From contig JAFVYP010000043.1 of NCBI GenBank assembly GCA_017508555.1, forward strand, positions 1 to 47,044: a stretch of DNA of 47,044 nt. Reading direction: 5' to 3'. This DNA comes from Lentisphaeria bacterium. Its GTDB lineage: Bacteria; Verrucomicrobiota; Lentisphaeria; Victivallales; Victivallaceae. Positions 11,643 through 28,035 of the stretch are shown here, one piece after another. Under the pieces are notes generated by a model that did no database searches, was not told the origin of the DNA, and was given only the letters and a program-made list of their open reading frames with translations. The position numbers were made by a program, and so were the translations under genes. Every line of letters starts with the position of its first letter. Position 1 is the stretch's first letter.

Positions 11643-11671
11643 TTGCAATTTCAAAACAAAAGAGATATATT
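11643..11671 (+). promoter_or_regulatory. Sigma70-type promoter of the nine-gene GTPase/channel operon
   Basis: TTGCAA (11643-11648), a 17-base spacer and TATATT (11666-11671). The predicted start near 11678 gives a leader of about 65 bases that contains a small hairpin (11703-11718). The promoter diverges from that of gmd, with about 70 bases between their -35 elements. Confidence 0.72.
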
Positions 11672-11702
11672 ATCCCTGGATTAGTGTAACTTCAGAGAAT
11701 GT

Positions 11703-11727
11703 TTGCGGTGTTCCGCAAGTGTTTTTA
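11703..11727 (+). promoter_or_regulatory. Leader hairpin with T-run, possible attenuator
   Basis: TTGCGG (11703-11708) pairs perfectly with CCGCAA (11713-11718) around a TGTT loop and is followed by GTGTTTTT. This is the shape of a weak intrinsic terminator, located between the predicted transcription start and the first gene of the operon. It could trim read-through or limit expression. The 6-bp stem is short, so the effect may be partial. Confidence 0.45.
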
Positions 11728-11742
11728 TTTAAGGGAAATATC

Positions 11743-12804
11743 GTGAAAAAATATCTGTTTATATTATTTGTTTTTCTGGCGGGAACAGGCTGTTTCGCCG
11801 CCAAATTCAGCGATCTTTCAAATGATGATGCCGGTCAGCTTGTTTTCCGCCGGTCAGATGCTGCCGTGTTTGTGTTTCAGCAGACGGTGGAGGGAAAGTA
11901 CTGGAAAGTCAGTGTGTTCAGAGGCAGCGGTGAAGGAAAGCTGCATCCCGCCGAATGTGAAGTGCTTGAGTTTTCTGATGATGCCATTGAACCGGCAGAT
12001 ATGGTCATCCACCTGATCTACTGGAATCTTGCCCGTCCGGGTTCATCCAAGGCCAGGGCTCTTTACAGGATCTGTCAGAAGGTCAGTTCTCCGCTGGGAG
12101 ATAAGGTCAATTCATATTACACGGAACGGAATGACAGCATGCGCCGTCTGGCGCTCGCCCGCAATGATTATCTTTCTGATATCAGAACTGTGGACAGATA
12201 TGATGATACAGCGTCTCTTATGAACTCTCAGGCGCAGGGGGCAGGCAACTCCAATAGTACTGCGGCTCTTGTTAAAACGCCGGCATCTGTGGCGCAGGAT
12301 TACATCGACAAGGCCTTGATGATCCTTGAAAACAATGCGGCTCTGGCGGTCATCCAATCCCTGGCCGATAATGACCAGAACCTTATGGCTGCCTTTATTC
12401 TTTTCTGTGATTTTCAGCGGGCTTTCTACAACCGGATCCCCCGCATGAGCAGAAAGGATGTTGATGCCGTTCTCAAAGAGCTTAATAAAACCGGACTGGA
12501 ACTGATCGAAAAATACCGGCAGAAACGTTCCGTCAACAGAAAACGCGAAACGGACTTCAAGGCACTGTGTCCCCGCAAACACGGTCCCTGGGAATATGCT
12601 GTTCCGGCAGGGATCAACGAGATGCTTCGCCGGGTGCAGTCCGCTTATATCGCCTTCGGCAGATTGAATACCTGTTCCGCCATGAGTGAGTTTCCCGAAT
12701 GGGGCAATGCCGCTCTGGAAGTTATGCAGATGACAAATTTTGTCGAGCTGGAACGGAAATTTGATTCCGCGATCAGAATGTATCAGAGACGTATTAAACC
12801 TTGA
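11743..12804 (+). CDS. Secreted protein of unknown function, first gene of the GTPase/channel operon
   Basis: The 353-residue product starts with a clear Sec signal peptide (KKYLFILFVFLAGTGCFA) and is probably periplasmic. The Cys before the cleavage region does not fit a good lipobox, so lipidation is doubtful. The mature part is mostly helical, with no catalytic motif that I recognise. A Ser/Asn/Gln-rich stretch near residues 160-175 probably links two helical regions. GTG at 11743 was chosen because AAGGGA lies about 7 bases upstream and it places the signal peptide at the N-terminus; another GTG at 11719 would add eight residues. The next gene begins 11 bases after its stop. Its place in the operon suggests a periplasmic partner of the membrane complex, but that is inference. 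Confidence 0.82.
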   Translation: MKKYLFILFVFLAGTGCFAAKFSDLSNDDAGQLVFRRSDAAVFVFQQTVEGKYWKVSVFRGSGEGKLHPAECEVLEFSDDAIEPADMVIHLIYWNLARPGSSKARALYRICQKVSSPLGDKVNSYYTERNDSMRRLALARNDYLSDIRTVDRYDDTASLMNSQAQGAGNSNSTAALVKTPASVAQDYIDKALMILENNAALAVIQSLADNDQNLMAAFILFCDFQRAFYNRIPRMSRKDVDAVLKELNKTGLELIEKYRQKRSVNRKRETDFKALCPRKHGPWEYAVPAGINEMLRRVQSAYIAFGRLNTCSAMSEFPEWGNAALEVMQMTNFVELERKFDSAIRMYQRRIKP

Positions 12805-12815
12805 GGTTCAGGCAG

Positions 12816-14591
12816 ATGAACAATTATTACATATACAAAGATGAAGTTCTTGTGGGTCCGTATTCTCTTGAAGAACTCCGGAAAATGCTGGCTGGCAAAA
12901 TGATTACAGGGGAAACCGTTGCGCAGATTTCCGGCGGCCCCCGGGACGGTACTTATCTGCCTGTCAGCGAGTTGATCGGCAGCAGTGTGGATCCGGTCAC
13001 GCTGACGACGACCAATGTGGCGCCCCTTTTGAGTATGGATGGCGATGTGATGCGCATTGCCTGTCCTGTCTGCGGACAGCATTACAAGATCCCCTGCGAG
13101 GAATATTCCTCCGACAAATACAGATGTCTCAAATGCGAAAGCGTTTTCCGTCTGCCTCCCCGGCCCGCTGCCGCCGGAAAAGAGCCGGAAAAATCCGCTG
13201 AAAAAGAGTTCTATTTCGATTCCGAGATCCCTGAAGGAGATCTTCTCTGTCCCCATTGCTGGAAAAGTTTCGATCAGGATTACGTGCTTTACATATCCGT
13301 CCACCCCTCCCTTTTCGGAGATCCTGTTCTGGGGGAATATGTTCAGAAGCGCTTTGTTCCCACGGTGTTCAATCAGTCGGGCCAGCCTCTGGATCAGTGC
13401 GGTCTTCCGGCAACTGAAATGGCCTGTCCCCGCTGCCATTTGCGTATTCCCGCCAGTTTGCTGGATACGCCGGCGTTGTACTTTTCCATTGCAGGCGCCA
13501 CCTCAAGCGGCAAGTCTTACTACCTGACTTGTCTGACCCATCAGCTGCGCAAGGTGCTGCCGGAATATTTCGGCGCGGCTTTTTTTGATGTGGATCCCCG
13601 GCTCAATGAAACGCTCAATACCTATGAAAAACAGCTTTTCATGTCCCTGACGCCGGAAAAACTGACGGCTCTGCCCGCGACACAGATCTCCGGAGACGGT
13701 ATCTCCGACAGGGTGCGCCTGGATGATATCGAGATCGAGCTGCCCAAGCCTTTCGTTTTTGAATTCCGCAGTAAGGACAGCATTGATGATATCAATATGA
13801 TCTTTTATGACAACTCCGGAGAAATGTTCATCCCCGGCCGCGATGAGTGGGTCAATCAGGCGACGTTCCATCTTTCGCACTCCCACGGGATCGTGTTTTT
13901 GTTCGATCCCACCAGTGATGCCGCCATGCGTTTGAAATTGTGCGATATCCGCGACCCCCAGGTTTCCAAAAATCCCCGGGTGGTGGATCAGACCATTCTG
14001 CTCAATGAAATGATAAACCGTATCCGGCGCCATGCCAATATGGTCAGTTCCGAAGGCTGCAGCATCCCCCTGACCATTGCCGTCGGCAAGTACGACACCT
14101 GGCAGGATAAGTTCAGCAAAGAGGTCTCTTCCATCAGTTATGTCACCACAGGAGAGGACGGCGAAAATATCCTGAATATGGATAACATTCTGGATGTCTC
14201 CTTTGCCTTGAGAGAGCTGATGCTCAAATACGCTCCCGGCCTTGTCAATGCGGCAGAAAGTTTCTTTGAAAAGGTCTGTTTTGTTCCTGTGAGCAACTTC
14301 GGAACGATCGCTGAACAGAATGAAAACGGTGTGATCGGTATCGTGCCTGAAAAGATCACTTCCGTCTGGGTGGAGGTCCCTCTGCTGCTGATGCTTTCCA
14401 ACAACGATCAGCTGCCCGCCGGACACGCCGGAGAACAGGGGGAACCCCTGGGAACCGTCTTCAAAAACAGCATCGTCTTTGAACATCCGGAAAGCGGCCG
14501 CCGGACCAAACTCCCCCGCAATTACAGCGGCGCGTTACTGAAGATCGGCGGTAAATCCTACCGGCTGCCGGAAATCGACACAGAACAGTAA
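12816..14591 (+). CDS. GYF/zinc-ribbon TRAFAC-type GTPase (double-GTPase family-like)
   Basis: The 591-residue soluble protein starts with a GYF_2-like domain (about residues 1-50, YYIYKDEVLVGPYSLEELR). A zinc ribbon follows (C83, C86, C104, C107), then a second possible metal site made by two CPxC pairs (C145/C148 and C204/C207). The P-loop domain begins directly after: Walker A GATSSGKS at 227-234, a G3-type DNSGE at 332-336, LFDPTSD further on, and GKYD at 424-427 in the place of NKxD. This matches the DO-GTPase group linked by Aravind and colleagues to GAP1 proteins, as I recall it; the subfamily name is from memory. The gene after it encodes a GAP1-N2-like protein, which supports the call. 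The likely role is a GTP-driven switch at the membrane complex encoded downstream. The ATG at 12816 was chosen over an in-frame start five codons upstream because it begins exactly at the GYF domain. Confidence 0.83.
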   Translation: MNNYYIYKDEVLVGPYSLEELRKMLAGKMITGETVAQISGGPRDGTYLPVSELIGSSVDPVTLTTTNVAPLLSMDGDVMRIACPVCGQHYKIPCEEYSSDKYRCLKCESVFRLPPRPAAAGKEPEKSAEKEFYFDSEIPEGDLLCPHCWKSFDQDYVLYISVHPSLFGDPVLGEYVQKRFVPTVFNQSGQPLDQCGLPATEMACPRCHLRIPASLLDTPALYFSIAGATSSGKSYYLTCLTHQLRKVLPEYFGAAFFDVDPRLNETLNTYEKQLFMSLTPEKLTALPATQISGDGISDRVRLDDIEIELPKPFVFEFRSKDSIDDINMIFYDNSGEMFIPGRDEWVNQATFHLSHSHGIVFLFDPTSDAAMRLKLCDIRDPQVSKNPRVVDQTILLNEMINRIRRHANMVSSEGCSIPLTIAVGKYDTWQDKFSKEVSSISYVTTGEDGENILNMDNILDVSFALRELMLKYAPGLVNAAESFFEKVCFVPVSNFGTIAEQNENGVIGIVPEKITSVWVEVPLLLMLSNNDQLPAGHAGEQGEPLGTVFKNSIVFEHPESGRRTKLPRNYSGALLKIGGKSYRLPEIDTEQ

Positions 14592-14618
14592 GGCCAGCAG
14601 AAAGAAAGCGGATAAAAT

Positions 14619-16841
14619 ATGTATGAATTGATTTACACATCCACGCCGCAGGGGCTGATCGCCGGCCGTTCCGGATTTTCCACCGTGGCCCTGACGGAGG
14701 GGTTTCCGCCGAACCTGATCTCTCCCATCGAAAATTTGAGCGGATATAAAACGCTGTTTCCGCCGGAGGATGAAAGAGCCGGTTCCAATCCCGTCAACTA
14801 CTCCTGTCAGCATTATTATTTCGGCAGGACTTTGTATATCGTTCTGAGCCGCATCGCCTTTGCCGGTTTGAGTTATACCGGACGCAGCAATGTTCTGGCG
14901 CATCATCTGCTTTTCACGCCTGAGGAACTTCAAAGTATCCCGGGCGGCTCCGCCGCCATTCTCCGGGCAGAGGAAAATTTTACCCCCTGGAGCGGAACAC
15001 CGGGAATGCTTCCGCAGAAAAGTCTCAAAAAAATCGTGACAGCTCCGCTGCTGGAAGATGGAGCCAACTGGGCTGAACTTGCCGGAGATTGCTATTTTTC
15101 TCCTTATACCGCCGATCTTTTCAACCGGAATGTGCCGATCCTGCTCTCTTTTGATCCTTTGAAGATCTCCGGCAAGAGGATCCTGGATCTGATTGCGGAA
15201 ACCTCTTCGCATCTGACTCAGGAGGAGCTGCTGCAATTTACATTTACGACTTACAGCTATTCTTCCGCCATCGCCAATCCGCTGGCGTTCCGTGCGTATC
15301 CGGAGGGATCTGTCCTGCTTGAAAGCGCCCGCCGGTTGAGTTCGGATTCTGTCATCAATCTGGGCATGCCCAATACTGTTCCCGCCGGATGGCGTCCTCC
15401 CGGTACAGAACCCGTTGAGGAACTGCTGCCGGAAGAGATGTGGGATACAGAGCCTGCTGTTGCCGCTATTGAGATCCTTGAACCCGAAGCGGCTGAGATC
15501 CGGCCCGTCCCTCAGCAAACGTATGCTCCGGAAAAAGAGCTGCCTCAGGTTTCCGCTGAAAAGAAACGTTTTTTACCGGTCATTATCGCCGTTCTTATTA
15601 TTGCCGCCGCCGCTGCTGTCGTTTGGCATATTGCCAGTTTCAACGGAGCCAAAGAGCGTGAAAGTGAGGATAATTTGATCGTTCAGGAGGAAAGTAAGGC
15701 GGTCCGGCCGGAAAAAACATTGCCGGAATCCCGAAATGTTCCGCAGAAAACACTGCCGGCAAAACCGGTCATGCCGACAAAGAAAAGAAAGGCCGCCGCT
15801 TTGCCTGCGGCACCTGTGGTCAAAGCGCCGGCCGGGGCGCAGACGGATGGGGAACTGCTTTCCCGCCAAGAGGTTTTTCAGCTGTATCTCTCCCTTTTCC
15901 GGGGGAAAAGTTTTATGCTGCCCGCCGGACTTCGGAAAGCAGACCGTCTGACGCTCACCATGGGTGATCCCGGCGGAGCCGGGAGCGCAGATTGGCAGAG
16001 CGCTGTCAAAGGAAACGGCAGTGCCGCGGTCACAGTTTATCCGCTCAAGGAGAAAAAGGGGGATTTTTCCACCACACTTGCCGCAGATTTTTCTTCCGCC
16101 AATGTTATGAAACTTTCTCTTGACAAGGGATATTTTTCCATAACGCTTCCTCAGGCGGCCAAGCTGTCTCCCTGTATGGAAAATGTCAGTGCGGTGGTTT
16201 TTTCCGGAAACGGCAGAAGGCTTTTCCGGGCCGATCTCAGAAAGTTCCCGCCCTATTTCAAAGATATCCTTTCCGGAAATCCCGGAAAACTGACAGTGAA
16301 AAAACAGGGGGGTGTTTATTCTGTCAACTGTATCCTTTCTGAAGGCATGTGGCTTTTCAGACGCCGTTTCGATTTGACTGTGAACGGGAAAGCTCAGGGC
16401 GGCAGTACATTCCGGAGCCGGGAGCTGCCTGTCAAAATACTGGATTTTTCCGGTATCCTCACGGATATCCTGACAAGGAATCAGGCGTTGACAAAACTCC
16501 GGATGGCAGAAAAAAGTTATCAGGATTTTTTGCGTAAGAACGCTGATCTTCTGATACAAACGGCAGAGGGGGCGGATCAGACGTTTTCTCAGAGCCGGAT
16601 GGCTCAAAAACAGAAATTGGAAGAGCGCAGAGAGAACGCCGGTCATTTCTACGAGCAGCAGAACAGGATCCTTGCGGAAAAGCTCAATGCCGCGTCTCCG
16701 GTACTTTTCAGAAAATTGGCTGAGGATATGGAATCAAATCAAACGATCGACATCAGACGGATGGACAACCTGAGCGCAGCTGATCTTGCGGCAGATATCT
16801 CGATCGGGGTAATTGAAAGGCAAAAAGATGAATCAAACTGA
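14619..16841 (+). CDS. GAP1-N2-type GTPase-associated membrane protein
   Basis: The 740-residue protein begins with a segment that I recognise as the N-terminal type 2 domain of GTPase-associated protein 1: ELIYTSTPQGLIAGRSGFSTVA, LSGYKTLFPP, NPVNYS, LSRIAFAGLSYTGRSNVLAHHL (residues 2-95), followed by an alpha/beta region to about 250. A Pro/Glu-rich linker leads to one strong membrane helix (about 318-341, LPVIIAVLIIAAAAAVV). Beyond it lie a basic linker and a C-terminal region of about 330 residues, predicted to be outside the cytoplasm, with no recognised domain. The domain arrangement implies that the cytoplasmic part meets the GTPase encoded just upstream and passes a signal across the inner membrane. 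It overlaps the next gene by 14 bases. Confidence 0.82.
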   Translation: MYELIYTSTPQGLIAGRSGFSTVALTEGFPPNLISPIENLSGYKTLFPPEDERAGSNPVNYSCQHYYFGRTLYIVLSRIAFAGLSYTGRSNVLAHHLLFTPEELQSIPGGSAAILRAEENFTPWSGTPGMLPQKSLKKIVTAPLLEDGANWAELAGDCYFSPYTADLFNRNVPILLSFDPLKISGKRILDLIAETSSHLTQEELLQFTFTTYSYSSAIANPLAFRAYPEGSVLLESARRLSSDSVINLGMPNTVPAGWRPPGTEPVEELLPEEMWDTEPAVAAIEILEPEAAEIRPVPQQTYAPEKELPQVSAEKKRFLPVIIAVLIIAAAAAVVWHIASFNGAKERESEDNLIVQEESKAVRPEKTLPESRNVPQKTLPAKPVMPTKKRKAAALPAAPVVKAPAGAQTDGELLSRQEVFQLYLSLFRGKSFMLPAGLRKADRLTLTMGDPGGAGSADWQSAVKGNGSAAVTVYPLKEKKGDFSTTLAADFSSANVMKLSLDKGYFSITLPQAAKLSPCMENVSAVVFSGNGRRLFRADLRKFPPYFKDILSGNPGKLTVKKQGGVYSVNCILSEGMWLFRRRFDLTVNGKAQGGSTFRSRELPVKILDFSGILTDILTRNQALTKLRMAEKSYQDFLRKNADLLIQTAEGADQTFSQSRMAQKQKLEERRENAGHFYEQQNRILAEKLNAASPVLFRKLAEDMESNQTIDIRRMDNLSAADLAADISIGVIERQKDESN

Positions 16842-19800
16842 CAGGCTTATTGAAGAGATCAAGATCCTTCTGCAAAGCAAAGACCTTTCTGACGGTCCGC
16901 AGCTGCATCGGCTGTATGACCGGGGCATGGATATTTTTTCCAAACTCAATGAGGCGCTGGACCAGTGCCAGACGCTGCGTGATAACGGGGCTATGACTGA
17001 AGCCAGCCGTTTGAATTACTCCTACGAGCCCTCTCTCGTGCGCGTGGCGGAAATGCTGGATTGTCCGGAGTGCCGTCAGTTTTTTGATATCTGCCGGGAT
17101 TACGGTCTGGAGTATCCCCGTTATCCGGATCAAAATCTGCTTGACATTTTAAGCGCTCCTGTTTCCAGCGGAGACAAGCACCTTCACTCTCTTCTGCAGG
17201 ATTACCGCAAAATCGCCCGGAACGGCTCCAAACAGGAACGGATCGCTCTTTTGAGAAAGATCGTTGAAAAACTGCCCAATTCCCGGCGCTGGCTCAACGA
17301 TCTGCTTTCTGCCGAGCGGGGCCGCCTTCAGGAGATCGAACAGGCTCTGGCGCAACTGCCCTCTGATGAAAATGAACTGAAGACTCTGGAAGGGTTTTAC
17401 CGGGAACTCAATGCACCTGAACTGCGGGTTTCTCCCAAGCCTGAACTGCTTGAAAAGATCAAAAACCGTCTGCTGCCCCTGCAGAAGTCCCGGCTTACCG
17501 GAGAGATCAATGACAAACTCCGTCAGATGCAGGATTGCTGTATGGAACGGGATTTTGTCCGTTTGAGAGAACTTTTTGACAGCTGGCAAACCTTTTGCAG
17601 CAATCCGGCGGTGCATCTGTCGCCCGAACAGCAGCAGGCCGTCCGGGATATGGAAAAACTTCTGACCGTTCAGGAGGAGGAGTCCCGGAAGGATCGGGAA
17701 TTTCAGCAGCTTGTCAGACGCATTGAAAGAAAACTGGCCGACAACTGTACTTTTGCCCAGGTGGCGGGAGATTACAATCAGCTGCGGCTCCAGGATCACG
17801 ATCTGCCCGAAAATCTCCTTCAGCGTCTGGAAGTTCTGGAGGAGGATTCCAGACGCCATGAACACTTCCGCAATGTCCGCCGCTGTGTTTACGGCGGAGG
17901 CGGCGCGCTTTTTATCATCGTTCTGGTCGTCGGTGCCGTTCTGCTGACGCAGCAGCATCTGGCTGTGAAACACAATTTCAATAATATGAGCAATTTTATT
18001 GCCGAGGGAAAACTGGAAGAGGCTGTGGCCGTTTACAAAGACTTGAAAAAGTCCTCTCCGCGGGTGGCGGCCGATGCCCGCCTGATCGCCCTCTGCAATG
18101 AGGCGGAGCAGAAGATCCGTGAAAATAAAGAGGAAAAGGCTTTCCGTATCCAGGAGTTTTCCCGTCTGCTCCGGCAGATCAAAAATCTTGCTCCTGCCGA
18201 TGACCTCTTTGACAACTCGCGGAAATTGGATCATTTTATGGCCTCTGCCCGCAAGATCATGCAGGATCAGCCGCAGAAAGCCCTGGATGAATTCCGGGAA
18301 CTGGAGACCGCCATCGCCCGCAGGCGCACTCAGCTCAAGCAAAAACGGGAAAAGCTCTTTTTCGACTTTTGCCGCACGACCCGTCAGGAGGCTGATAAGA
18401 TCATCACCACGATTGCCGGGAAAGAACTTTTCAGTGTCCGCGCCGCTTTTGAAGGGCTGAAAAACCGTTTTGCAGACCGGATGCAGCAGTCGCCCTTTAT
18501 GCCCGAACACATCCGCAGCCGTGAGAAAAAGGATTGGGATCTTGTCTGCAAGCGTTTTGAGGCGGCTCTGAAAAAGGAGACGATTCTTCAGCAGCTGCAA
18601 AAGCCCGCTTCTTTTGACAGTTACATCGCGACCCTGGAAAAATCCCGTTACGATGAACCTGCCGTTGCCATGATCTATCAGCGGGCCCTCGCCGCCAAAG
18701 ATCTGTGGGTGCGGGAGTGCAGAAATTACAGGGGGTTCATTCCGGAGAAGTCAGATATCGCGGATGCTTCCGCCAAATTCAATGACGGTTTCTTCAAGCA
18801 GGATCTGGCCCGCATTGTTCCGGCGACCCGGCGCAGTGCCGGTTTGCGGGACTTTTTCGGTCAGATCAGAAAACTCAGCAAACTGCGTGAGATTGTTTTT
18901 TCCACCTCTGCGGGAGAGGATTATTTCTTCTATACCGAAAAAGAGATCGTTTGGGAGCGTCTCTCCCGTCCCCGCCGTCTCAATATCTCCTTCGAGGATA
19001 TGGAAAAGGGAGCTTTTTATACGTTCAAATTTGATTTTGCTGCCCGGAAAGATCCTTTTGTGCCGGTGAATGTTCCCACGGATCTCTCTTACAAAATGCC
19101 TGAAAAATTTGCTGCGCTCTGCGGACAGACAACCTTGGATTCCAAGTTTGAAGTTCCCTTCTGGCCCGGCAGAACGTTCGCCGAAAAGTTCCATGCGCTG
19201 GGCAGTGACGGTCCCGGTATCTGTGAGAATCTTCAGCAGGCCCTTGTTTGGGTTTCCGGTGCGGATAATATAACCAATCCTTTCCTGAAAGAGATGTTCA
19301 CCCTGCGCCTTCTGGAAGCGCTCTGCGCCTGTTCCCCCTTCTTTACAGAGGGCAAAGAGGCGCTGGCCAGGCTCAAGGATCAATATGTGCAGAGACAGAG
19401 CAACTGGCGTTCTCCCCAAAGCCAGCCCTCCCGGAAACAGGAGATGGAGCAGGTGAACGAACTGCTGGCGCAGCTGGATCTTGCCCGTATCGTTGAAGCA
19501 CGGAAACTCCGGGCGGATTTTCTCTGTGCTTTCCATGCCCGCAAACTGGTTCCGGCGGGGGTGGTGAAAGAGTTGTCCGGTGAGAAGGTGCAGATCTCTT
19601 ATTTCCTCAAAAAGGCTCCTGTTGAAATGATGGTCATGGATCAGCAGGGACTTGTGCTGCTTTCTTCTGCGCTCCGTCAGGGGATCGCTGCCGGAGAGGA
19701 CAGACGCCATCTCTTTCAGGGACAGGTCCTCTGGACTTTCGGAGACGATATGCGTACGGTCGATTTTGTCAGAAAATGGATCGGCGAGGCCCGGAAACTC

Positions 19801-19866
19801 AATATTGAACTGGGCGTCAAACCCAGGATCTTCCCCGGAGGACTTACGATCGGAGGCATCAGGTGA
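16828..19866 (+). CDS. Large single-pass, helix-rich membrane protein of unknown function
   Basis: The 1012-residue product has a cytoplasmic-looking N-terminal half of about 350 helical, charged residues, one membrane helix near 354-376 (GGGALFIIVLVVGAVLLTQ), and a C-terminal part of about 635 residues that begins with long Lys/Glu/Gln-rich helices of coiled-coil type and ends in a mixed alpha/beta region. No enzyme motif was recognised. ATG at 16828 was chosen because AAAGG lies 7 bases upstream; a TTG at 16813 would add five residues. It overlaps the preceding gene by 14 bases and the following one by 4, so its synthesis is coupled to both. Its size and single helix suggest a scaffold spanning the membrane. 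Confidence 0.85.
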   Translation: MNQTDRLIEEIKILLQSKDLSDGPQLHRLYDRGMDIFSKLNEALDQCQTLRDNGAMTEASRLNYSYEPSLVRVAEMLDCPECRQFFDICRDYGLEYPRYPDQNLLDILSAPVSSGDKHLHSLLQDYRKIARNGSKQERIALLRKIVEKLPNSRRWLNDLLSAERGRLQEIEQALAQLPSDENELKTLEGFYRELNAPELRVSPKPELLEKIKNRLLPLQKSRLTGEINDKLRQMQDCCMERDFVRLRELFDSWQTFCSNPAVHLSPEQQQAVRDMEKLLTVQEEESRKDREFQQLVRRIERKLADNCTFAQVAGDYNQLRLQDHDLPENLLQRLEVLEEDSRRHEHFRNVRRCVYGGGGALFIIVLVVGAVLLTQQHLAVKHNFNNMSNFIAEGKLEEAVAVYKDLKKSSPRVAADARLIALCNEAEQKIRENKEEKAFRIQEFSRLLRQIKNLAPADDLFDNSRKLDHFMASARKIMQDQPQKALDEFRELETAIARRRTQLKQKREKLFFDFCRTTRQEADKIITTIAGKELFSVRAAFEGLKNRFADRMQQSPFMPEHIRSREKKDWDLVCKRFEAALKKETILQQLQKPASFDSYIATLEKSRYDEPAVAMIYQRALAAKDLWVRECRNYRGFIPEKSDIADASAKFNDGFFKQDLARIVPATRRSAGLRDFFGQIRKLSKLREIVFSTSAGEDYFFYTEKEIVWERLSRPRRLNISFEDMEKGAFYTFKFDFAARKDPFVPVNVPTDLSYKMPEKFAALCGQTTLDSKFEVPFWPGRTFAEKFHALGSDGPGICENLQQALVWVSGADNITNPFLKEMFTLRLLEALCACSPFFTEGKEALARLKDQYVQRQSNWRSPQSQPSRKQEMEQVNELLAQLDLARIVEARKLRADFLCAFHARKLVPAGVVKELSGEKVQISYFLKKAPVEMMVMDQQGLVLLSSALRQGIAAGEDRRHLFQGQVLWTFGDDMRTVDFVRKWIGEARKLNIELGVKPRIFPGGLTIGGIR

Positions 19867-20792
19867 AGGATAATTCCGGCAACAAGATCTGTTATGTGAA
19901 AAAAAACGGTCTGATCACCGGTCCCTTTTCGATCATCACCCTGAAGGCCCGGATCAATACCAATTCCCTCAATGGCGGGGATATGGTCTCTTTTGACAAG
20001 GTTTCCTGGAAGAGACTGGATGTCCTTTTCCCCCATCTGGCCCCGCCGGAACAGCGCGTTTACACGGCCGGAGAGGAAACGGCCGCCTGGCAGGAGACCT
20101 GCGGATATGCTGTTGGCTCTCAGACAGCGGATCCCGGTGCTGTCCCCGGCGGCAGCGATCCCGGTGCTGCCGGAACAGCTGACCGTTTTATCCCGGCTTA
20201 TCCGGCACATCTGGCGGCCCGGTTTTTCTGTGAACTGGCTGTGGTGTTTGCAAGCGTCTGGGATTTTCCCCTGCTCTTTCCGGCCATTGCTCACGGATTC
20301 CGGAAAATGACATGGATGGCGTGGGGCATCAATATTTTCTGGGCTGTTCTCATGGTGGTCCTTTTCGGTCGGGAATACAGCCGTCATTTCAGCTGGTTTT
20401 TCTCTCCTTTGATGGCGGTGCTTGCCGTTGTGACCGTTTTCGGGATGGCCGCCGGATTTGCCTGGTGTGTGGAAAAATTCTGCAGCAAGAAAGCCGCCCG
20501 CAAGAAACTTGATCCTGAGTGGCAGCTTTTCCGGCTTGCCGTCTTTATGGATTCGGCCTTCATCCTCAACGCGTTCATCGCATTGGGACACGGATTCGGT
20601 CACGCTCAGCAGCTTTGGGTTTTTCTGTTTCTGCTTCTTACAGTCTCTCTTGTTGTCTGCTGCGGAACAAATCAGCTGCGGTTTTATCTGGAGCGGACAG
20701 CTTCCATCAAAAGTGAGCGGCTCCTGTTTTTCTTTTCGCTCTATACCGTTTTGTTGACAATAACAGCTTATTTTTTATTGAAATTGATTTGA
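19863..20792 (+). CDS. GYF_2-domain multi-pass membrane protein
   Basis: The 309-residue protein starts with a GYF_2-like domain (about residues 9-58, CYVKKNGLITGPFSIITLK) related in pattern to the one on the GTPase. A Gly/Ala/Pro-rich linker (about 75-110) follows, then about six hydrophobic helices between 118 and the C-terminus (for example FFSPLMAVLAVVTVFGMAAG and WVFLFLLLTVSLVVCC). The start is the GTG of a GTGA overlap with the preceding gene. The two GYF-type domains in one operon may bind the same partner, perhaps a proline-rich linker such as that of the GAP1-like protein. That pairing is inference. No catalytic motif is visible. Confidence 0.82.
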   Translation: MKDNSGNKICYVKKNGLITGPFSIITLKARINTNSLNGGDMVSFDKVSWKRLDVLFPHLAPPEQRVYTAGEETAAWQETCGYAVGSQTADPGAVPGGSDPGAAGTADRFIPAYPAHLAARFFCELAVVFASVWDFPLLFPAIAHGFRKMTWMAWGINIFWAVLMVVLFGREYSRHFSWFFSPLMAVLAVVTVFGMAAGFAWCVEKFCSKKAARKKLDPEWQLFRLAVFMDSAFILNAFIALGHGFGHAQQLWVFLFLLLTVSLVVCCGTNQLRFYLERTASIKSERLLFFFSLYTVLLTITAYFLLKLI

Positions 20793-20805
20793 AAGAAGGT
20801 ATTTT

Positions 20806-21666
20806 ATGAAACAAAAACAGCTTTCCAGAAGATTGAGTGACATTGAGTGCATCTGCGGTTTCAAAAGCCGTAAATTTACCGATGTCAATGCGTTGTTTTC
20901 CTTTTTGGCAGGCGTGCTGCTGTTCGGAGCGTTCTATTTTCCGCTGAGTTTTTTCCGGGGAAAACACTGGGCGATCGACATGTTTTTCCACGGGGGGACG
21001 GAAAACCGTTCCAGTATTCCCTATTACACGGTTTTTCTCGGCTGCTGGGCGCTGGCCATTTTGCTGGTGAAACTGCAGAAACTGAGCGTGCAGAAGAAGG
21101 CGCTTGAACTGGATATCCTGCCGGATGATCCCAATTTTGTCCTTACCTGCGCCACGGCACGGACGATTTTGGGCAAGATCAGTATTCTGGTGGTTCATCC
21201 CGAAGATTTCGTTCTTCTCGACCGCATCCAGCGCGCCCTGATGAATTTGAAAAATCTGGGCAATGTCAGCGCCGTTGCCGAATGTCTCAACACCCAGGCG
21301 GAAAACGATGAAAATTATCTTTCCGGCAGTTATACCGTTCTCAAAGGTTTTATCTGGGCGATCCCCGTCCTCGGATTTATCGGAACGGTTCTGGGTCTTG
21401 CTGAAGCCATCGGCGGCTTCGGCGCCGTTGTCAAAAAAGGGGTCGATCCCCAGGGATTGATCGCCGCTCTGGGCAACGTAACGGGAGGTCTTTCCACCGC
21501 CTTTGAAACGACGCTGATCGCTCTTGTCATGGCGCTTATCATCCAGCTGCTGATGACCGTTGTCCTCAACAAAGAGGAGTTGTTTCTCGACCGCTGTTCC
21601 GATTACTGCCACCGCTGCATCATCAGCAAGATCAAAAGCATCGACCTGGCAGGGGATGAGGATTAA
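20806..21666 (+). CDS. MotA/TolQ/ExbB family ion-channel subunit
   Basis: The 286-residue inner-membrane protein has two N-terminal hydrophobic helices (about residues 27-47 and 69-85), a cytoplasmic loop of about 90 residues, and the two conserved channel helices. The third helix carries PVLGFIGTVLGLAEAI and the fourth LSTAFETTLIALVMALI, the pattern of the MotA/TolQ/ExbB proton channel domain. Such subunits form pentamers around two Asp-bearing B subunits and turn ion flow into motion. Here two different candidate B subunits are encoded directly downstream. The loop is longer than in plain ExbB, closer to MotA or ZorA. The gene is 13 bases after its neighbour with the ribosome binding site GAAAGAAGG. 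Confidence 0.9.
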   Translation: MKQKQLSRRLSDIECICGFKSRKFTDVNALFSFLAGVLLFGAFYFPLSFFRGKHWAIDMFFHGGTENRSSIPYYTVFLGCWALAILLVKLQKLSVQKKALELDILPDDPNFVLTCATARTILGKISILVVHPEDFVLLDRIQRALMNLKNLGNVSAVAECLNTQAENDENYLSGSYTVLKGFIWAIPVLGFIGTVLGLAEAIGGFGAVVKKGVDPQGLIAALGNVTGGLSTAFETTLIALVMALIIQLLMTVVLNKEELFLDRCSDYCHRCIISKIKSIDLAGDED

Positions 21667-21674
21667 GTTTTTTT

Positions 21675-22505
21675 ATGAGTAAAAAAGACAATTCACCGGC
21701 CATATCCTTTTTCAGTTTTCAGGATATCATCACCTCCATCACCGGGATCATGTTCCTGGTGGTCATGATGCTGGTGCTGATGATCCTCATTCAGCCTGAC
21801 GCGGCGCAGAAGCAGAAGGAACAGGCCGTTTCGGATCAGCTGAAAACCCTTCGTGAGGAAATGCAGAAGCTGAAAACGGCCCTTGATGAACTCAATCAGC
21901 GTTCAGAGGTCCAGCGCAAGCGCATTGATGAACTCAAGAAGCTCAAAATGGAAACGCTGCCGGAACTCAAGGCCTCCCTCATCGAGAAGCTCAAGGCGGC
22001 GGATATGAACATGATCCGTCTGATGGATGAAAACAAACGCTTCATCCTTCTGCGGAAAGAGGAAAGCACCTCCGGGGAAAAACTTCAGGAAAAATTCAAG
22101 GAGACCGCCGATATCAACCTGAAACTCAAAGAGGTCCTCAAACAGCTTGAAAAGGAGACCGCTGACTATCAGAAACTCAGTGAGAAATATCAGGCCGTGG
22201 TCAAGTTTGTCTGGAACAAAAGCAATCCCAAGCGGCCGATCCTGCTGGAGTGCAGCGACAGCGTCATCATCGGCAGCTGTCTGGATGGAAAATTTGCCAA
22301 CAAAAGTTTCAATGATTACAACAGCTGTATCAGCTGGTGCCGCAGTTTTCCTGTGAATGATACCTATTTTATTCTGCTGCTCAAACCCTCCTCCTTCAGT
22401 TACGCTGAAAAGTTCTCTCTGGCGCTTTCCAAAGCCGGTTATGAGCGGGGGCGGGAGGTTTTGCCCAACGATCAGACCATGTTGTTCAAGGAGCCTGTCA
22501 AATGA
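21675..22505 (+). CDS. MotB/ExbD-like stator subunit with coiled coil, copy 1
   Basis: The 276-residue protein has one N-terminal membrane helix carrying an acidic residue at its start (FSFQDIITSITGIMFLVVMM, Asp near residue 16), the place of the ion-binding Asp in MotB, ExbD and TolR. A long Lys/Glu/Gln-rich coiled coil follows (about 40-175). It ends in a compact domain of about 90 residues with the motifs KRPILLECSD and TYFILLLKPSSFSYAEKFS. It does not show the peptidoglycan-binding OmpA motif. It starts 8 bases after the MotA-like gene and its stop overlaps the next gene by four bases. It probably forms the rotor or peg inside the channel pentamer together with the next protein. Confidence 0.82.
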   Translation: MSKKDNSPAISFFSFQDIITSITGIMFLVVMMLVLMILIQPDAAQKQKEQAVSDQLKTLREEMQKLKTALDELNQRSEVQRKRIDELKKLKMETLPELKASLIEKLKAADMNMIRLMDENKRFILLRKEESTSGEKLQEKFKETADINLKLKEVLKQLEKETADYQKLSEKYQAVVKFVWNKSNPKRPILLECSDSVIIGSCLDGKFANKSFNDYNSCISWCRSFPVNDTYFILLLKPSSFSYAEKFSLALSKAGYERGREVLPNDQTMLFKEPVK

Positions 22506-23428
22506 GCCGGAAACAGTCAGAAGATTCCAGTCTTGAACTGCTGCTGGATACCATGTGCAATACTTTCGGCGGGGTCATGTTCATCGCCATTTCTCTGGCG
22601 GTCATGATCTCCATGCGCAATGCCGTTGCGCAGCAGGCGCCGGATCATACAGCAGAAATAGAAAAACTCAAAAAAGAGACCGCCGTCCTTGCGCAGCAGC
22701 TTGCCAGCCGGATGAAAGAGACGGATGAACTTGTCCGGACAGCCCGGCGGATGAAAGATGATCCCCGTTTGCAGATCGTCAATGAGATCGCCTTTCTGGA
22801 GCAGCAGCTCAAAGAGAAAAAACTCAAAGAACAGCTTCTGGAAAGGCAGGCGCAGTTGAGCAGAACGGAGCTGGATAATACCAAGCTCAAGACGCAAAAG
22901 ATCTCCGATTCTCTTCTGGAAGCGCAGAAGGAGGAAAGTCTGCTCAGTCAGAAAAAGGATACCCTTGACAAGCAGTTGGCGGAACTGAAAAACCGCATCA
23001 GCGGTATGACGCCTCAAAACATGGTGTTCAATACGCTGGTCAAAAAGGATCAGACACCTTACTTTATTCTGCTGCGGGACGGCAAATCCTGGGCCGTGGG
23101 GCCTGAGATCCGCGATGGCGTTTCCCGGCCTCTCGGCAGTGTCAGCCATACCGTTTCCGGAGGGCGTGTCATCTGCCGTCCGGCGGGAGAGGGCGTACCG
23201 GTCTTTTCCGGTGACGGATTCAGTTCCGGCTTTCAAGCACTTCTCAAAAGTATTCCGGCCGACCGTATTCCTGAATTTGTCCTTGCCAGGGGGGAGGCGG
23301 AAAACTTTTACAAGCTGCGGAACATTCTCAAAAACGAGGGTATTTTCCATGGATTTTATCTGCAGCGTCAGGAAAACGGCGATTTCAGTTATCAATTAAC
23401 CAATGTAAAGACGCGCTATGAATATTGA
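22502..23428 (+). CDS. MotB/ExbD-like stator subunit with coiled coil, copy 2
   Basis: The 308-residue protein repeats the architecture of the gene before it. An N-terminal membrane helix carries an Asp (LELLLDTMCNTFGGVMFIAI, Asp near residue 16). A coiled coil follows (about 50-165), then a C-terminal domain with PYFILLRDGKSWAVG and a later EFVLARGEAENFYKLRNIL, which aligns by eye with the YFILL segments of copy 1. The two proteins are therefore probably distant paralogues. The ATGA overlap with copy 1 suggests equal synthesis, as expected for a heterodimer. The last 11 bases overlap the vWA gene. Confidence 0.82.
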   Translation: MSRKQSEDSSLELLLDTMCNTFGGVMFIAISLAVMISMRNAVAQQAPDHTAEIEKLKKETAVLAQQLASRMKETDELVRTARRMKDDPRLQIVNEIAFLEQQLKEKKLKEQLLERQAQLSRTELDNTKLKTQKISDSLLEAQKEESLLSQKKDTLDKQLAELKNRISGMTPQNMVFNTLVKKDQTPYFILLRDGKSWAVGPEIRDGVSRPLGSVSHTVSGGRVICRPAGEGVPVFSGDGFSSGFQALLKSIPADRIPEFVLARGEAENFYKLRNILKNEGIFHGFYLQRQENGDFSYQLTNVKTRYEY

Positions 23429-24440
23429 GATCAAAAAAATGCTTTACCGGAGCGGTATCCACTTCGGCTTTTATTTTCTGGTGATGCTGATCGGTTTTCT
23501 GCTGCTCGTTTCCGGAGGCGGCTTCGGCTCCGGTTCGGGAACAGGAACCGGGAGCGGCAACGGCTCCGGCGGACGGGGCGGCGGTTCCGGCAAAGGGGCT
23601 GCTGAAAGCGGCTGGGGGCCCGGAGCGGGGAAGGATGGTTTGACCGGAACAGGCAATATCCGTGTTGAGGGAAAAGAAGAAGCCGGTTCCGGCGGCACGG
23701 AGGAAAAAGCCAAACCTGAAGAAAAAAGTTCTCCGCAGGCAGCGCCGGGACCGGCTGCCAGGCAGCCCGCGCCGCAGAAAACGCTCATAACCGTTGTCGG
23801 ACAGGGGGATCTGTCGGAAGATATGCCGATGATCCACGTGCCCGGAAAACCGGCACCGGCAGCCAAAGGGAGTGCGACGCCGGCGGCCAAAGGCTTTTTC
23901 GGTGTCAAGGTCGGCGGCAGTTCCCGTGTTCTGTTTCTGCTGGACGTTTCCGGCTCTATGGGGGCGGGGACAAGCGAGGGAATGCGCCGTATAGATCTGT
24001 TGAAAAAAGAGATGGCCAGGACTCTTCAAGATGGTTATAAAGAGGCTGTTGCGGGAAAAAGCAGCAATGGTGTGTTCCGGATCGTCACCTTTGAAAGTTC
24101 CTGCGGATTTTATCCCAATTCCACGCGCAGCTGTTATTACCGCAACAGGAGCGATGTGGAGGGTGGTCTCCGTTTCATCAGCAACATGAATGCCGGAGGC
24201 GGAACAGCCATGCTGCTTGCGTGGAAAACGATCCTGCCGATCATTGCCGCCAACAAGATCACGACGGTCTGTTTTCTGTCGGACGGTGCGCCCAATGACT
24301 GTTCACCGCCACAGCTGCTTGACCTGCTGAAAAAATCCGCGCCTGAGCTTGTGATCCACGGCATCGCCATGGGATTGAAGTCAGATTTGCTCCAGGCGAT
24401 CTCCAAGCAGCACGGCGGGACCTACCGCGAAGTTTACTGA
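23418..24440 (+). CDS. Membrane-anchored vWA-domain protein with glycine-rich linker
   Basis: The 340-residue protein has one N-terminal membrane helix (about residues 13-33), a striking Gly/Ser-rich tract (about 34-75), a Lys/Pro/Ala-rich linker to about 160, and a von Willebrand factor A domain. The metal-ion-dependent adhesion site is complete: DVSGS beginning at D176, the Thr of NAGGGTAML and the Asp of LSDGAPND. By the inside-rule the vWA domain should face the periplasm. vWA domains bind partners through a Mg-bridged acidic residue, so this protein may contact one of the other extracytoplasmic parts of the system. It is the last gene of the operon, with a terminator directly after the stop. 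Confidence 0.88.
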   Translation: MNIEIKKMLYRSGIHFGFYFLVMLIGFLLLVSGGGFGSGSGTGTGSGNGSGGRGGGSGKGAAESGWGPGAGKDGLTGTGNIRVEGKEEAGSGGTEEKAKPEEKSSPQAAPGPAARQPAPQKTLITVVGQGDLSEDMPMIHVPGKPAPAAKGSATPAAKGFFGVKVGGSSRVLFLLDVSGSMGAGTSEGMRRIDLLKKEMARTLQDGYKEAVAGKSSNGVFRIVTFESSCGFYPNSTRSCYYRNRSDVEGGLRFISNMNAGGGTAMLLAWKTILPIIAANKITTVCFLSDGAPNDCSPPQLLDLLKKSAPELVIHGIAMGLKSDLLQAISKQHGGTYREVY

Positions 24441-24461
24441 CCGCGCAGCGCGGGCTTTTTT
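24441..24461 (+). terminator. Terminator of the nine-gene operon
   Basis: CCGCG (24441-24445) pairs with CGCGG (24449-24453) around a CAG loop and is followed by GC and six T. It starts on the base after the vWA stop codon. The stem is short but wholly G/C. Confidence 0.75.
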
Positions 24462-26587: not shown

Positions 26588-28027
26588 ATGCTGTTTAACT
26601 CATACTATTTTTTACTTGTTTTTTTCCCGGTAGTTTTTATTGGCTATTGGTTTTTTATACGGTTAAAATGTTTTGAAGCGGCGAAAATACTGTTAGTGTC
26701 AGGCTCCATTTATTTCTATGGTTTTTTCAAACCGGGATATGTGCCGATTTTTGTCATTTCGATTCTGATAAATTACTGTTTGTGCCGGAAAATCCAGACG
26801 GCAAAATCTGAAACAGTACGCCGTTGGGTAACGGCTTTGGGATGTGTGATGAATTTAGGCGTCTTGGGTTATTTCAAATATACAGGATTTCTGTTTGAGA
26901 ATTTGAATTTACTTTTTGATTGGCAATTTGCAATCCCGAATATTGTATTGCCTTTGGGAATAAGTTTCTATACTTTCCAGCAGTTGTCATTTCTCATTGA
27001 CTGTTATCGTGGTGACCGGACAACATATTCACTGACAGATTATGCGCTGTTTGTCACCTTTTTCCCGCAGCTGATCGCCGGACCGATCGTGCTTCCAAGT
27101 GAAATGCTGCCGCAGTTTGCAGATCCTGCCCGCAAAGCAATAAATTGGCAGAACATGAATCAAGGGTTGTTTTTGTTCGCCTGCGGCTTGGCAAAAAAAT
27201 GTTTTATTGCTGACAGTTTGGCATTTATCGTCACTCAAGGATTTGATACAGGAACTCAACTGACCTTTACTGAAGGCTGGCTCGTATCATTGTCATTCAC
27301 ATTCCAGCTGTATTTTGACTTTTCCGGATATTGTGATATGGCCTCCGGTATTGCCAGGATGTTCAATATCGATCTGCCGTTGAACTTTAATTCGCCCTAT
27401 CGGGCAACAGATTTTCAGAGTTTCTGGCGCAGATGGCACATGACGCTGGGACGTTTTATGATGAACTATCTGTATATTCCATTGGGAGGCAACAGAAAGG
27501 GAACGGTCCGGACGCTGTTGAATCTGCTGATCGTTTTTTTGGTCAGCGGCTTGTGGCACGGTGCAGGTTGGCTGTTTCTGATTTGGGGCGGCTTGCACGG
27601 ATCGGGCATTTTGATCCACCGGTTGTGGCGGTATGTCATGGAGAAAAAATTCAACGGCTGGAAATTGCCAAAAATACCTTCAATTCTGCTGACCTTCTTT
27701 TTTGTCAACATTTTTTGGATCTTTTTCCGGGCAACGACATTGCGGCGGGCTTGGGATATTGTCAAAAGCATGTTTGACTTTGCTCACATGACAGGCTTTT
27801 CCAAAGATTTCCGGCGTGTTATGGGGAGTTTTGATATTTCCCGGGATCTGCTCTTTGCAATTTTTGCCGCAGCTGCGGTGATTGTATTTTTGTTGCCCAA
27901 TTCAGCAAAATGGCAGCGTTTTTTTGAAAAACATCCCTGTTTACGGATCATCACAACAGCGGGTTTTTTCTTTATCGGTTTTATTTGCATTTCAAGAAAA
28001 TCTCCATTTCTGTATTTTAATTTTTGA
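26588..28027 (+). CDS. MBOAT family membrane O-acyltransferase
   Basis: Multi-pass acyltransferase of the AlgI/DltB type that moves an acyl group, often acetyl, to an extracellular polysaccharide. The 479-residue product has about ten helices, the motif SFWRRWHMTLGRFMMNYLYIPLGGNR and the near-invariant active-site His in SGLWHGAGW (H324). It opens with LFNSYYFLLVFFPVVFIGYW, the common N-terminus of bacterial AlgI-like proteins. The next gene encodes a likely SGNH-type partner, the arrangement seen for AlgI with AlgJ or AlgX and DltB with DltD. The base composition is clearly AT-richer than in the genes before 24 kb. Confidence 0.93.
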   Translation: MLFNSYYFLLVFFPVVFIGYWFFIRLKCFEAAKILLVSGSIYFYGFFKPGYVPIFVISILINYCLCRKIQTAKSETVRRWVTALGCVMNLGVLGYFKYTGFLFENLNLLFDWQFAIPNIVLPLGISFYTFQQLSFLIDCYRGDRTTYSLTDYALFVTFFPQLIAGPIVLPSEMLPQFADPARKAINWQNMNQGLFLFACGLAKKCFIADSLAFIVTQGFDTGTQLTFTEGWLVSLSFTFQLYFDFSGYCDMASGIARMFNIDLPLNFNSPYRATDFQSFWRRWHMTLGRFMMNYLYIPLGGNRKGTVRTLLNLLIVFLVSGLWHGAGWLFLIWGGLHGSGILIHRLWRYVMEKKFNGWKLPKIPSILLTFFFVNIFWIFFRATTLRRAWDIVKSMFDFAHMTGFSKDFRRVMGSFDISRDLLFAIFAAAAVIVFLLPNSAKWQRFFEKHPCLRIITTAGFFFIGFICISRKSPFLYFNF

Positions 28028-28035
28028 GGTGCTTC

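What the first reader, a model, noticed from the sequence alone, without database searches (positions are those of the whole stretch)
11643..24461. Nine-gene GTPase-GAP1-MotA/B-vWA operon: a candidate envelope-spanning, ion- and GTP-driven system
Seen: one promoter, nine same-strand genes with gaps of at most 27 bases and five junctions coupled by overlap or very close spacing, and a terminator on the base after the last stop. The products combine a GYF/zinc-ribbon GTPase, a GAP1-N2-like transmembrane protein, a 1012-residue single-pass protein, a GYF multi-pass protein, a MotA/TolQ/ExbB channel, two Asp-bearing B-type subunits, a membrane-anchored vWA protein and a secreted protein. Known: GAP1 proteins and their GTPases were predicted by the Aravind group to be parts of NTP-dependent conflict systems, and ZorA/ZorB in Zorya phage defence use a MotA/MotB-type motor. 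Inferred: this is a conflict or defence machine that senses an envelope event and answers through ion flow, without a visible nuclease or helicase effector. The exact combination is not one I can name.
Basis: partly seen in the sequence, partly recalled or inferred. Interest (0 to 1): 0.92.

Follow-up and report, generated by a model that had tools for sequence, protein, structure and literature searches.

The report
GTPase-switched ion motor of the cell envelope
A nine-gene bacterial operon joins a predicted GTP-driven conflict-system switch to a proton-motor of the TolQ/TolR kind, and the same gene set recurs side by side across several phyla, so it is very probably one real, undescribed envelope machine whose job (virus defence or surface work) is still unknown.

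Summary
The operon is real. Nine same-strand genes (11743-24440) are packed with gaps of 27 bases or less and end in a terminator. Core products: a GYF/zinc-ribbon DO-GTPase, a single-pass GAP1-N2 protein, a ~1000-residue single-pass helical-repeat protein, a TolQ/ExbB-type channel with both pore threonines, and two homologous TolR/ExbD-type subunits with an invariant transmembrane Asp, a coiled-coil stalk and (B1, predicted) a TolR fold.

Of 41 loci chosen by the channel protein alone with enough flank held, 36 have all five partners. In 388 genomes of the phylum, channel and GAP1 co-occur in 33 of 35 genomes (Fisher 2e-25); 0 of 40 distant channel relatives have GAP1 nearby. The set spans Lentisphaerota, Planctomycetota, Verrucomicrobiota and Desulfobacterota.

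The literature I could search describes the two halves separately (GAP1-N2 GTPase systems, eLife 2020; a PVC 'TPR + tolQ + tolR pair + vWA' cluster, MBE 2025), not their union. Defence is plausible but unproven: distribution is patchy, extracytoplasmic parts evolve fast and distant triads sit among defence genes, but no effector or defence-island link was found. Verdict: new variant of a known kind.

The parts
11743..12804 (+). gene 1: secreted protein with signal peptide, no known family; limited to the window's own lineage of the system
   Evidence: ORF and start; no Pfam above noise; homologues in Lentisphaerota loci L021, L028, L030-L033 and weaker ones
12816..14591 (+). gene 2: GYF domain + zinc ribbons + DO-GTPase (P-loop GATSSGKS, DxxGE, KxD)
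   Evidence: motifs and four Cys invariant in 36 homologues; DO-GTPase2 in 32/36
14619..16841 (+). gene 3: GAP1-N2 + GAP1-M (cytoplasmic), one TM helix near 319-340, fast-evolving C-terminal part inferred periplasmic
   Evidence: (GAP1-N2 in 40/40 homologues)
16828..19866 (+). gene 4: ~1012-aa protein, helical-repeat N half, one TM (350-382), helical plus beta C half; structural scaffold/sensor
   Evidence: AlphaFold pLDDT 86.8; only weak TPR-like/helical matches
19863..20792 (+). gene 5: GYF-domain multi-pass membrane protein (accessory; GYF membrane proteins occur in 26 of 41 testable loci)
20806..21666 (+). gene 6: TolQ/ExbB-type channel subunit A, four TM helices; T194 and T236 align with TolQ T145 and T178
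21675..22505 (+). gene 7: B1, TolR/ExbD-type subunit: TM helix with invariant D17, coiled coil 42-179, TolR-fold domain 185-264
22502..23428 (+). gene 8: B2, homologous to B1 over its length, invariant D16 in LLLDTMCNTFGG
23418..24440 (+). gene 9: membrane-anchored Gly-rich linker + vWA domain (accessory; vWA found in 19 of 41 testable loci)
24441..24459 (+). intrinsic terminator: CCGCGC-A-GCGCGG followed by GCTTTTTT

Best explanation
The operon encodes one envelope machine. Shown by sequence: a TolQ/ExbB-type channel (A) with two different TolR/ExbD-type subunits (B1, B2), each with the ion-carrying Asp, nearly always encoded beside a DO-GTPase, a membrane-anchored GAP1-N2 protein and a ~1000-residue membrane-anchored scaffold. 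Inferred: five A subunits surround a B1-B2 heterodimeric axle and are turned by proton (or sodium) flow; the long coiled coils carry the two TolR-like heads far into the periplasm; the GTPase, recruited at the membrane by GAP1 and the scaffold, acts as the on/off switch, and the fast-evolving periplasmic parts of GAP1, the scaffold and the stalks, plus lineage-specific vWA or secreted proteins, form the side that meets the target. Most likely use (inferred, only slightly ahead of its main rival): an inducible conflict/defence device that senses an envelope event and answers by force or ion flow.
For: Domain matches. Co-occurrence: 36 of 41 testable loci have all five partners; 33 of 35 channel-bearing genomes of 388 have GAP1-N2, odds ratio 133, Fisher 2e-25, 30 of 37 channel genes with GAP1 within 12 kb, and the two channel genomes without GAP1 (G058, G364) are cut by contig ends. 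Motor chemistry: Asp invariant in 55 B1 and 50 B2, pore Thr aligned with TolQ T145/T178, B1 head = TolR fold (Z 8.9 to 5by4, ranks first). Switch chemistry: invariant P-loop, DxxGE, KxD. Constant engine, variable outside: identity to four close homologues 76% GTPase, 71% GAP1-N2, 91/87% B transmembrane segments, against 23% GAP1 outer part and 32-35% stalks. Patchy: channel in 9 of 34 genomes of the genus; absent at the rarA site of G018, where G031 and G003 have it. Distant A-B1-B2 triads on two cyanobacterial plasmids lie by Cmr/CARF-HEPN/viperin and by methylase/SLATT/helicase genes.
Against: No experiment exists. No effector domain and no recurrent defence neighbours (no background control was run). 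The channel tree needs 7 phylum changes against a minimum of 4, i.e. mostly vertical. Two loci have GTPase-GAP1-scaffold without a motor (L018, L024), and some Desulfamplus and planctomycete loci are incomplete. Fast outer evolution also fits surface structures. Stoichiometry, topology and ion are inferred. The two plasmid loci are too few to be more than a lead.
Confidence: 0.42

Rival explanations
1. Surface-force machine, analogous to the Myxococcus Agl-Glt/Nfs machinery: a TolQ plus two TolR-type subunits controlled by a GTPase drives adhesion complexes, surface polymers or gliding; not defence.
For: Same motor gene count (AglR + AglQ + AglS; PMC3169522); GTPase-governed; helical-repeat scaffold, vWA adhesion-type domain, long periplasmic stalk; window operon lies inside a surface-polysaccharide gene cluster; near-vertical tree; PMC12204202 suggests gliding-like force transduction for PVC tolQ + tolR pair + vWA clusters.
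Against: GTPase is of the DO-GTPase family with GAP1, not MglA/MglB; no Glt-type homologue above noise; flanking polysaccharide genes are not a general feature; only about a quarter of congeneric genomes have it.
Confidence: 0.35
2. A Ton/Tol-like envelope maintenance or uptake system (force delivered to an outer-membrane partner), with the GTPase as regulator.
For: TolR/ExbD fold and TolQ-like pore; vWA anchored by one TM helix like TolA/TonB topology; PMC12204202 proposes this for vWA proteins.
Against: The TonB/TolA SHLS motif is absent from all 30 vWA relatives here; the own genome has another, stronger ExbB/TolQ-family gene on contig C155; not conserved in the genus as a housekeeping system would be.
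Confidence: 0.15
3. GTPase-GAP1-scaffold and the A-B1-B2 triad are two modules that only share an operon, without functional coupling.
For: Each half also occurs alone: motorless GTPase-GAP1-scaffold (L018, L024) and stand-alone triads (L110-L118).
Against: Linkage kept across at least four phyla, including divergently oriented pairs in Verrucomicrobia (L083, L103), and a sharp boundary: 0 of 40 distant channel genes have GAP1 nearby.
Confidence: 0.06

Closest known systems
GAP1-N2-type GTPase-centric conflict systems (Kaur et al. 2020, PMC7159879)
   Same: GAP1-N2 + GAP1-M protein with C-terminal TM, upstream DO-GTPase with zinc ribbons, TM-rich partners, GYF-TM proteins noted in planctomycetes
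   Different: No FNIII-repeat protein, tubulin, HSP70 or kinase theme; instead a TolQ/TolR-type motor and ~1000-aa scaffold. MotA, TolQ and ExbB are not mentioned in that paper's main text
[quoted passage not shown]
   Same: Gene order scaffold - channel - B1 - B2 - vWA looks the same as the second half of this operon; probably overlapping loci
   Different: That paper names no GTPase or GAP1 (GTPase 0 hits); its vWA family has the SHLS motif, ours does not. Its figure is not held, so identity of the loci could not be checked
Zorya (ZorA/ZorB)
   Same: Ion-motor pair of the same superfamily used in defence; weak profile matches
   Different: No ZorA tail, no peptidoglycan-binding ZorB domain, no ZorC/D/E/F/G effector; two B genes; GTPase switch
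Agl-Glt gliding motor of Myxococcus (AglR, AglQ, AglS; PMC3169522)
   Same: One TolQ-type plus two TolR-type subunits under GTPase control
   Different: Different GTPase family; no Glt homologues found; long coiled-coil stalks on the B subunits
Stand-alone zinc-ribbon-A/B1/B2 triads of Verrucomicrobiota and cyanobacterial plasmid triads (this work)
   Same: Homologous A, B1 and B2
   Different: No GTPase/GAP1; Asp usually missing from B1 (3 of 10 have it) but kept in B2 (9 of 9)

Membership tests
GAP1-N2 GTPase-centric systems (PMC7159879) | GAP1-N2 domain protein | tested here: met
   8e-22, over cut-off; 40 of 40 homologues
GAP1-N2 GTPase-centric systems (PMC7159879) | DO-GTPase with conserved Glu in Walker B and N-terminal zinc ribbons | tested here: met
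   DxxGE and four Cys invariant in 36 sequences; DO-GTPase2 profile in 32/36, though the window protein alone is below cut-off
GAP1-N2 GTPase-centric systems (PMC7159879) | FNIII-repeat component | tested here: not met
   no fn3 match in any of the nine proteins at E<=1
GAP1-N2 GTPase-centric systems (PMC7159879) | variable effector genes | tested here: inconclusive
   terminal genes vary (vWA, zinc-ribbon protein, lipoprotein) but no effector activity is recognisable
TolQ/ExbB-TolR/ExbD ion motors | MotA/TolQ/ExbB channel family | tested here: met
   PF01618 43.1 bits against cut-off 22.9
TolQ/ExbB-TolR/ExbD ion motors | pore Thr pair in A and Asp in the B transmembrane helix | tested here: met
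   T194/T236 align with TolQ T145/T178; Asp 55/55 and 50/50
TolQ/ExbB-TolR/ExbD ion motors | TolR/ExbD periplasmic fold in B | tested here: met
   B1 predicted model: TolR 5by4 Z 8.9 over 85 residues, ExbD Z 7.5; B2 inferred by homology with B1 only
TolQ/ExbB-TolR/ExbD ion motors | 5:2 assembly and ion-driven rotation | not testable with these tools
   needs cryo-EM and ion-flux assays
Zorya | ZorA with long cytoplasmic C-terminal tail | tested here: not met
   A is 286 aa and ends a few dozen residues after its last TM helix
Zorya | ZorB with peptidoglycan-binding domain | tested here: not met
   B1 outer domain is TolR-like; no OmpA/MotB match
Zorya | ZorC/ZorD, ZorE or ZorF/ZorG | tested here: not met
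   no PADLOC match in the operon
vWA force transducers of PVC bacteria (PMC12204202) | SHLS motif in the TM helix | tested here: not met
   0 of 30 relatives have S-x3-H-x6-L-x3-S; two have the His part. Spacing of the motif is from my own knowledge of TonB
vWA force transducers of PVC bacteria (PMC12204202) | TPR gene + tolQ + heterologous tolR pair + vWA order | tested here: inconclusive
   order matches if gene 4 is their TPR gene; Foldseek's best matches to gene 4 are TPR superhelices but weak; their figure is not held
Agl-Glt gliding machinery | MglA-family GTPase and Glt proteins | tested here: inconclusive
   GTPase matches DO-GTPase2; only a noise-level GltJ match to a Pro-rich region of gene 3 (E 0.068)

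The most novel reading that the evidence does not exclude
A second, Zorya-independent class of motor-based immunity in diderm bacteria: a GTP switch (DO-GTPase/GAP1) licenses a heterodimeric TolR-type ion motor with two active Asp residues, so that GTP state, not an attached nuclease, sets ion flow or force across the envelope on attack.
Probability: 0.27. Interest if true: 0.87.

Novelty: new variant of a known kind. Interest (0 to 1): 0.63.

Why it matters
GAP1/DO-GTPase systems are predicted conflict systems with no tested mechanism that I could find. Physical linkage to a motor whose ion-carrying residues are known gives them an immediately testable output: ion flux and force, expected to be abolished by single Asp-to-Asn changes. 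It also joins two separately described orphan gene sets (GTPase-centric conflict systems and PVC tolQ/tolR/vWA clusters) into one machine and adds a GTP-controlled member to the 5:2 ion motors.

Tried and rejected
Rfam scan of the window: nothing. PDB sequence profiles: channel, scaffold and GAP1 without convincing match, B1/B2 only coiled-coil noise, GTPase only Der at E 0.05. Scaffold fold search: helical-repeat matches below the level I would trust. Hypothesis that the system is housekeeping: disfavoured for the genus by patchiness (9 of 34), although assemblies are incomplete. Hypothesis of rampant recent transfer: not supported by the tree. Defence-island hypothesis: 119 proteins from operon flanks scanned, only isolated generic matches such as kinase/PP2C-type models; no background control. 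Plasmid or phage carriage: only distant channel relatives on 5 plasmids, none in phages. Canonical Zorya, Tol-Pal and Agl-Glt membership: failed or inconclusive tests above. Apparent absence of GAP1 beside the channel in G058 and G364 traced to contig ends.
Full report
What is there. The window is contig 197 of a draft genome (2.46 Mb, 77% complete); its nearest named relatives are gut and rumen Lentisphaeria MAGs. Nine genes run from 11743 to 24440 with junctions of +11, +27, -14, -4, +13, +8, -4 and -11 bases, followed at once by a terminator-like hairpin. The flanks are surface-polysaccharide genes: GDP-mannose dehydratase and an epimerase upstream, glycosyltransferases, MBOAT and a pyruvyl transferase downstream. 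No RNA family matches.

Protein identities. Gene 3 is a clear GAP1-N2 protein (8e-22) with a sub-cut-off GAP1-M match. Gene 6 is a clear MotA/TolQ/ExbB channel (4e-11). Gene 2 has GYF, zinc-ribbon and DO-GTPase2 matches that fall below Pfam cut-offs singly, but 32 of 36 family members match DO-GTPase2, best 7e-9, and P-loop, DxxGE, KxD and four cysteines are invariant. Forty of forty GAP1 homologues match GAP1-N2. The channel's pore region aligns with TolQ (37% over 51 columns, hhalign 59%) and ExbB (36%) but hardly with E. coli MotA (0.9%); T194 and T236 fall on TolQ T145 and T178, the residues known to line the ion path (established knowledge of TolQ/ExbB). B1 and B2 are homologous to each other (hhalign 99.6%, though coiled coil contributes) and have an invariant Asp in the single TM helix: 55 of 55 and 50 of 50. 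AlphaFold of B1 (pLDDT 89.6) gives a TM helix, a coiled coil of about 138 residues and a small alpha/beta head; TolR 5by4 ranks first (Z 8.9, 85 residues, rmsd 3.0), ExbD follows at Z 7.5 among other common alpha/beta folds. Gene 4 is modelled well (pLDDT 86.8) as helical repeats, one TM helix and a helical/beta C half, without a convincing known fold.

Is it a system? Starting from the channel protein alone, the named-genome scan found 288 relatives, of which the best 80 were kept. Profiles built from ten genus/order loci and then from the wider set were run over their flanks. Of 41 loci with at least 9 kb upstream and 3 kb downstream, 36 have GTPase, GAP1, scaffold, B1 and B2; GYF membrane proteins occur in 26 and vWA in 19. 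In an even sample of 388 genomes of the phylum, 37 channel genes scoring over 250 bits lie in 35 genomes, 33 of which have GAP1-N2 (6.5 expected from the 72 of 388 base rate); 30 of 37 have GAP1 within 12 kb; the 40 further channel relatives examined, all between 110 and 210 bits, have none nearby. The two channel genomes without GAP1 are contig-end cases. The core occurs in Lentisphaerota, Planctomycetota, Verrucomicrobiota (sometimes with the two halves divergently oriented) and Desulfobacterota; a Nitrospirota contig shows part of it. MAG binning errors are possible, for example the record titled Syntrophus (L051).

Where the motor came from. The distant channel genes below the boundary that I looked at belong to stand-alone triads A-B1-B2, often with a zinc ribbon fused to A and without GTPase or GAP1. 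In these, B2 keeps the Asp (9 of 9) but B1 usually does not (3 of 10); two Asp-bearing B subunits are thus characteristic of the GTPase-linked form and its nearest kin. Two cyanobacterial plasmids carry homologous triads (A 99.7%, B1 97%, B2 98% hhalign probability) with a longer A tail, beside type III-B CRISPR/CARF-HEPN/viperin genes and beside methylase/SLATT/helicase genes. This is a lead towards defence, not proof.

How it evolves. Within the genus the channel is in 9 of 34 genomes. Near relative G018 shares the flanking genes upstream (including rarA) but has other genes where G031 and G003 carry the operon. The channel tree is near-vertical between phyla, yet two deep lineages coexist inside one genus. 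Against four close homologues, identity is 76% for the GTPase domain, 71% for GAP1-N2 and about 90% for the B transmembrane segments, but 23% for the outer part of GAP1 and 32-35% for the stalks (topology inferred). A constant engine with a changing outer face fits a sensor or an attack surface, but also a species-specific surface structure.

Mechanism proposed. Shown: the parts, their conservation and their linkage. Inferred: A5 around a B1-B2 axle; ion flow through the Thr/Asp path; heads held up to about 20 nm from the membrane if the coiled coils are continuous (138 residues at 0.15 nm; the model has a break near 88-92); GTPase docking on GAP1-N2 and the scaffold to switch the motor. Purpose: defence/conflict 0.42, surface-force machine 0.35, Ton/Tol-like maintenance 0.15, uncoupled neighbours 0.06.

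Comparison. Kaur et al. (PMC7159879) defined the GTPase-GAP1 core and predicted conflict roles; the main text does not mention MotA, TolQ or ExbB, and the FNIII component that they give for GAP1-N2 systems is not found here, so I do not file this under their described themes. A 2025 paper (PMC12204202) reports, for PVC bacteria, a TPR gene, tolQ, a pair of heterologous tolR genes and a vWA protein, with no GTPase; this probably overlaps the second half of the operon, which lowers novelty. Zorya (PMC11890865) differs in tail, ZorB domain and effectors; Agl (PMC3169522) shares the one-TolQ-two-TolR plan. Literature searches found no description of the union; only open-access PMC text was searched.

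Noticed in passing
L136 (Anabaena pANACY.03) 5818-8397; L137 (Microcystis p1) 5539-8136: Relatives of the A-B1-B2 triad with a long A-subunit tail sit next to type III-B Cmr/CARF-HEPN/viperin genes and next to N6-methylase/SLATT/PLD-Snf2-helicase genes: a possible separate motor-based defence cassette in cyanobacteria.
   Followed up: partly
L110-L118: Stand-alone triads (zinc-ribbon A + B1 + B2) of unknown function are spread through Verrucomicrobiota among unrelated neighbours; B1 often has Ser where the GTPase-linked B1 has Asp.
   Followed up: partly
L018 9203-16591 and L024 3143-11688: GTPase-GAP1-scaffold loci without any motor gene nearby; in G008 (L018) no channel homologue was found in the whole draft genome.
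   Followed up: partly
L029 1129-9521 (G011): A GAP1-N2 locus of another kind in the same genus, with a divergent GTPase and no motor.
   Followed up: no
L071, L072, L074, L076 (Desulfamplus): Channel gene with B1/B2 displaced by several kb or missing, or without GTPase/GAP1: rearranged or decaying copies.
   Followed up: no
L055, L057 and L105 flanks: The operon lies beside a rarA/mgsA ATPase gene in two congeneric genomes and again in a Limisphaerales genome; possible preferred site or coincidence.
   Followed up: partly
window 28024-29091 and 29137-30681: Two ORFs inside the polysaccharide cluster without any Pfam match at 1e-5.
   Followed up: no
G061 contig C38 (L122, L123): Parts of two copies of the system lie on one 38-kb contig, about 20 kb apart, each cut by a contig end.
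   Followed up: no
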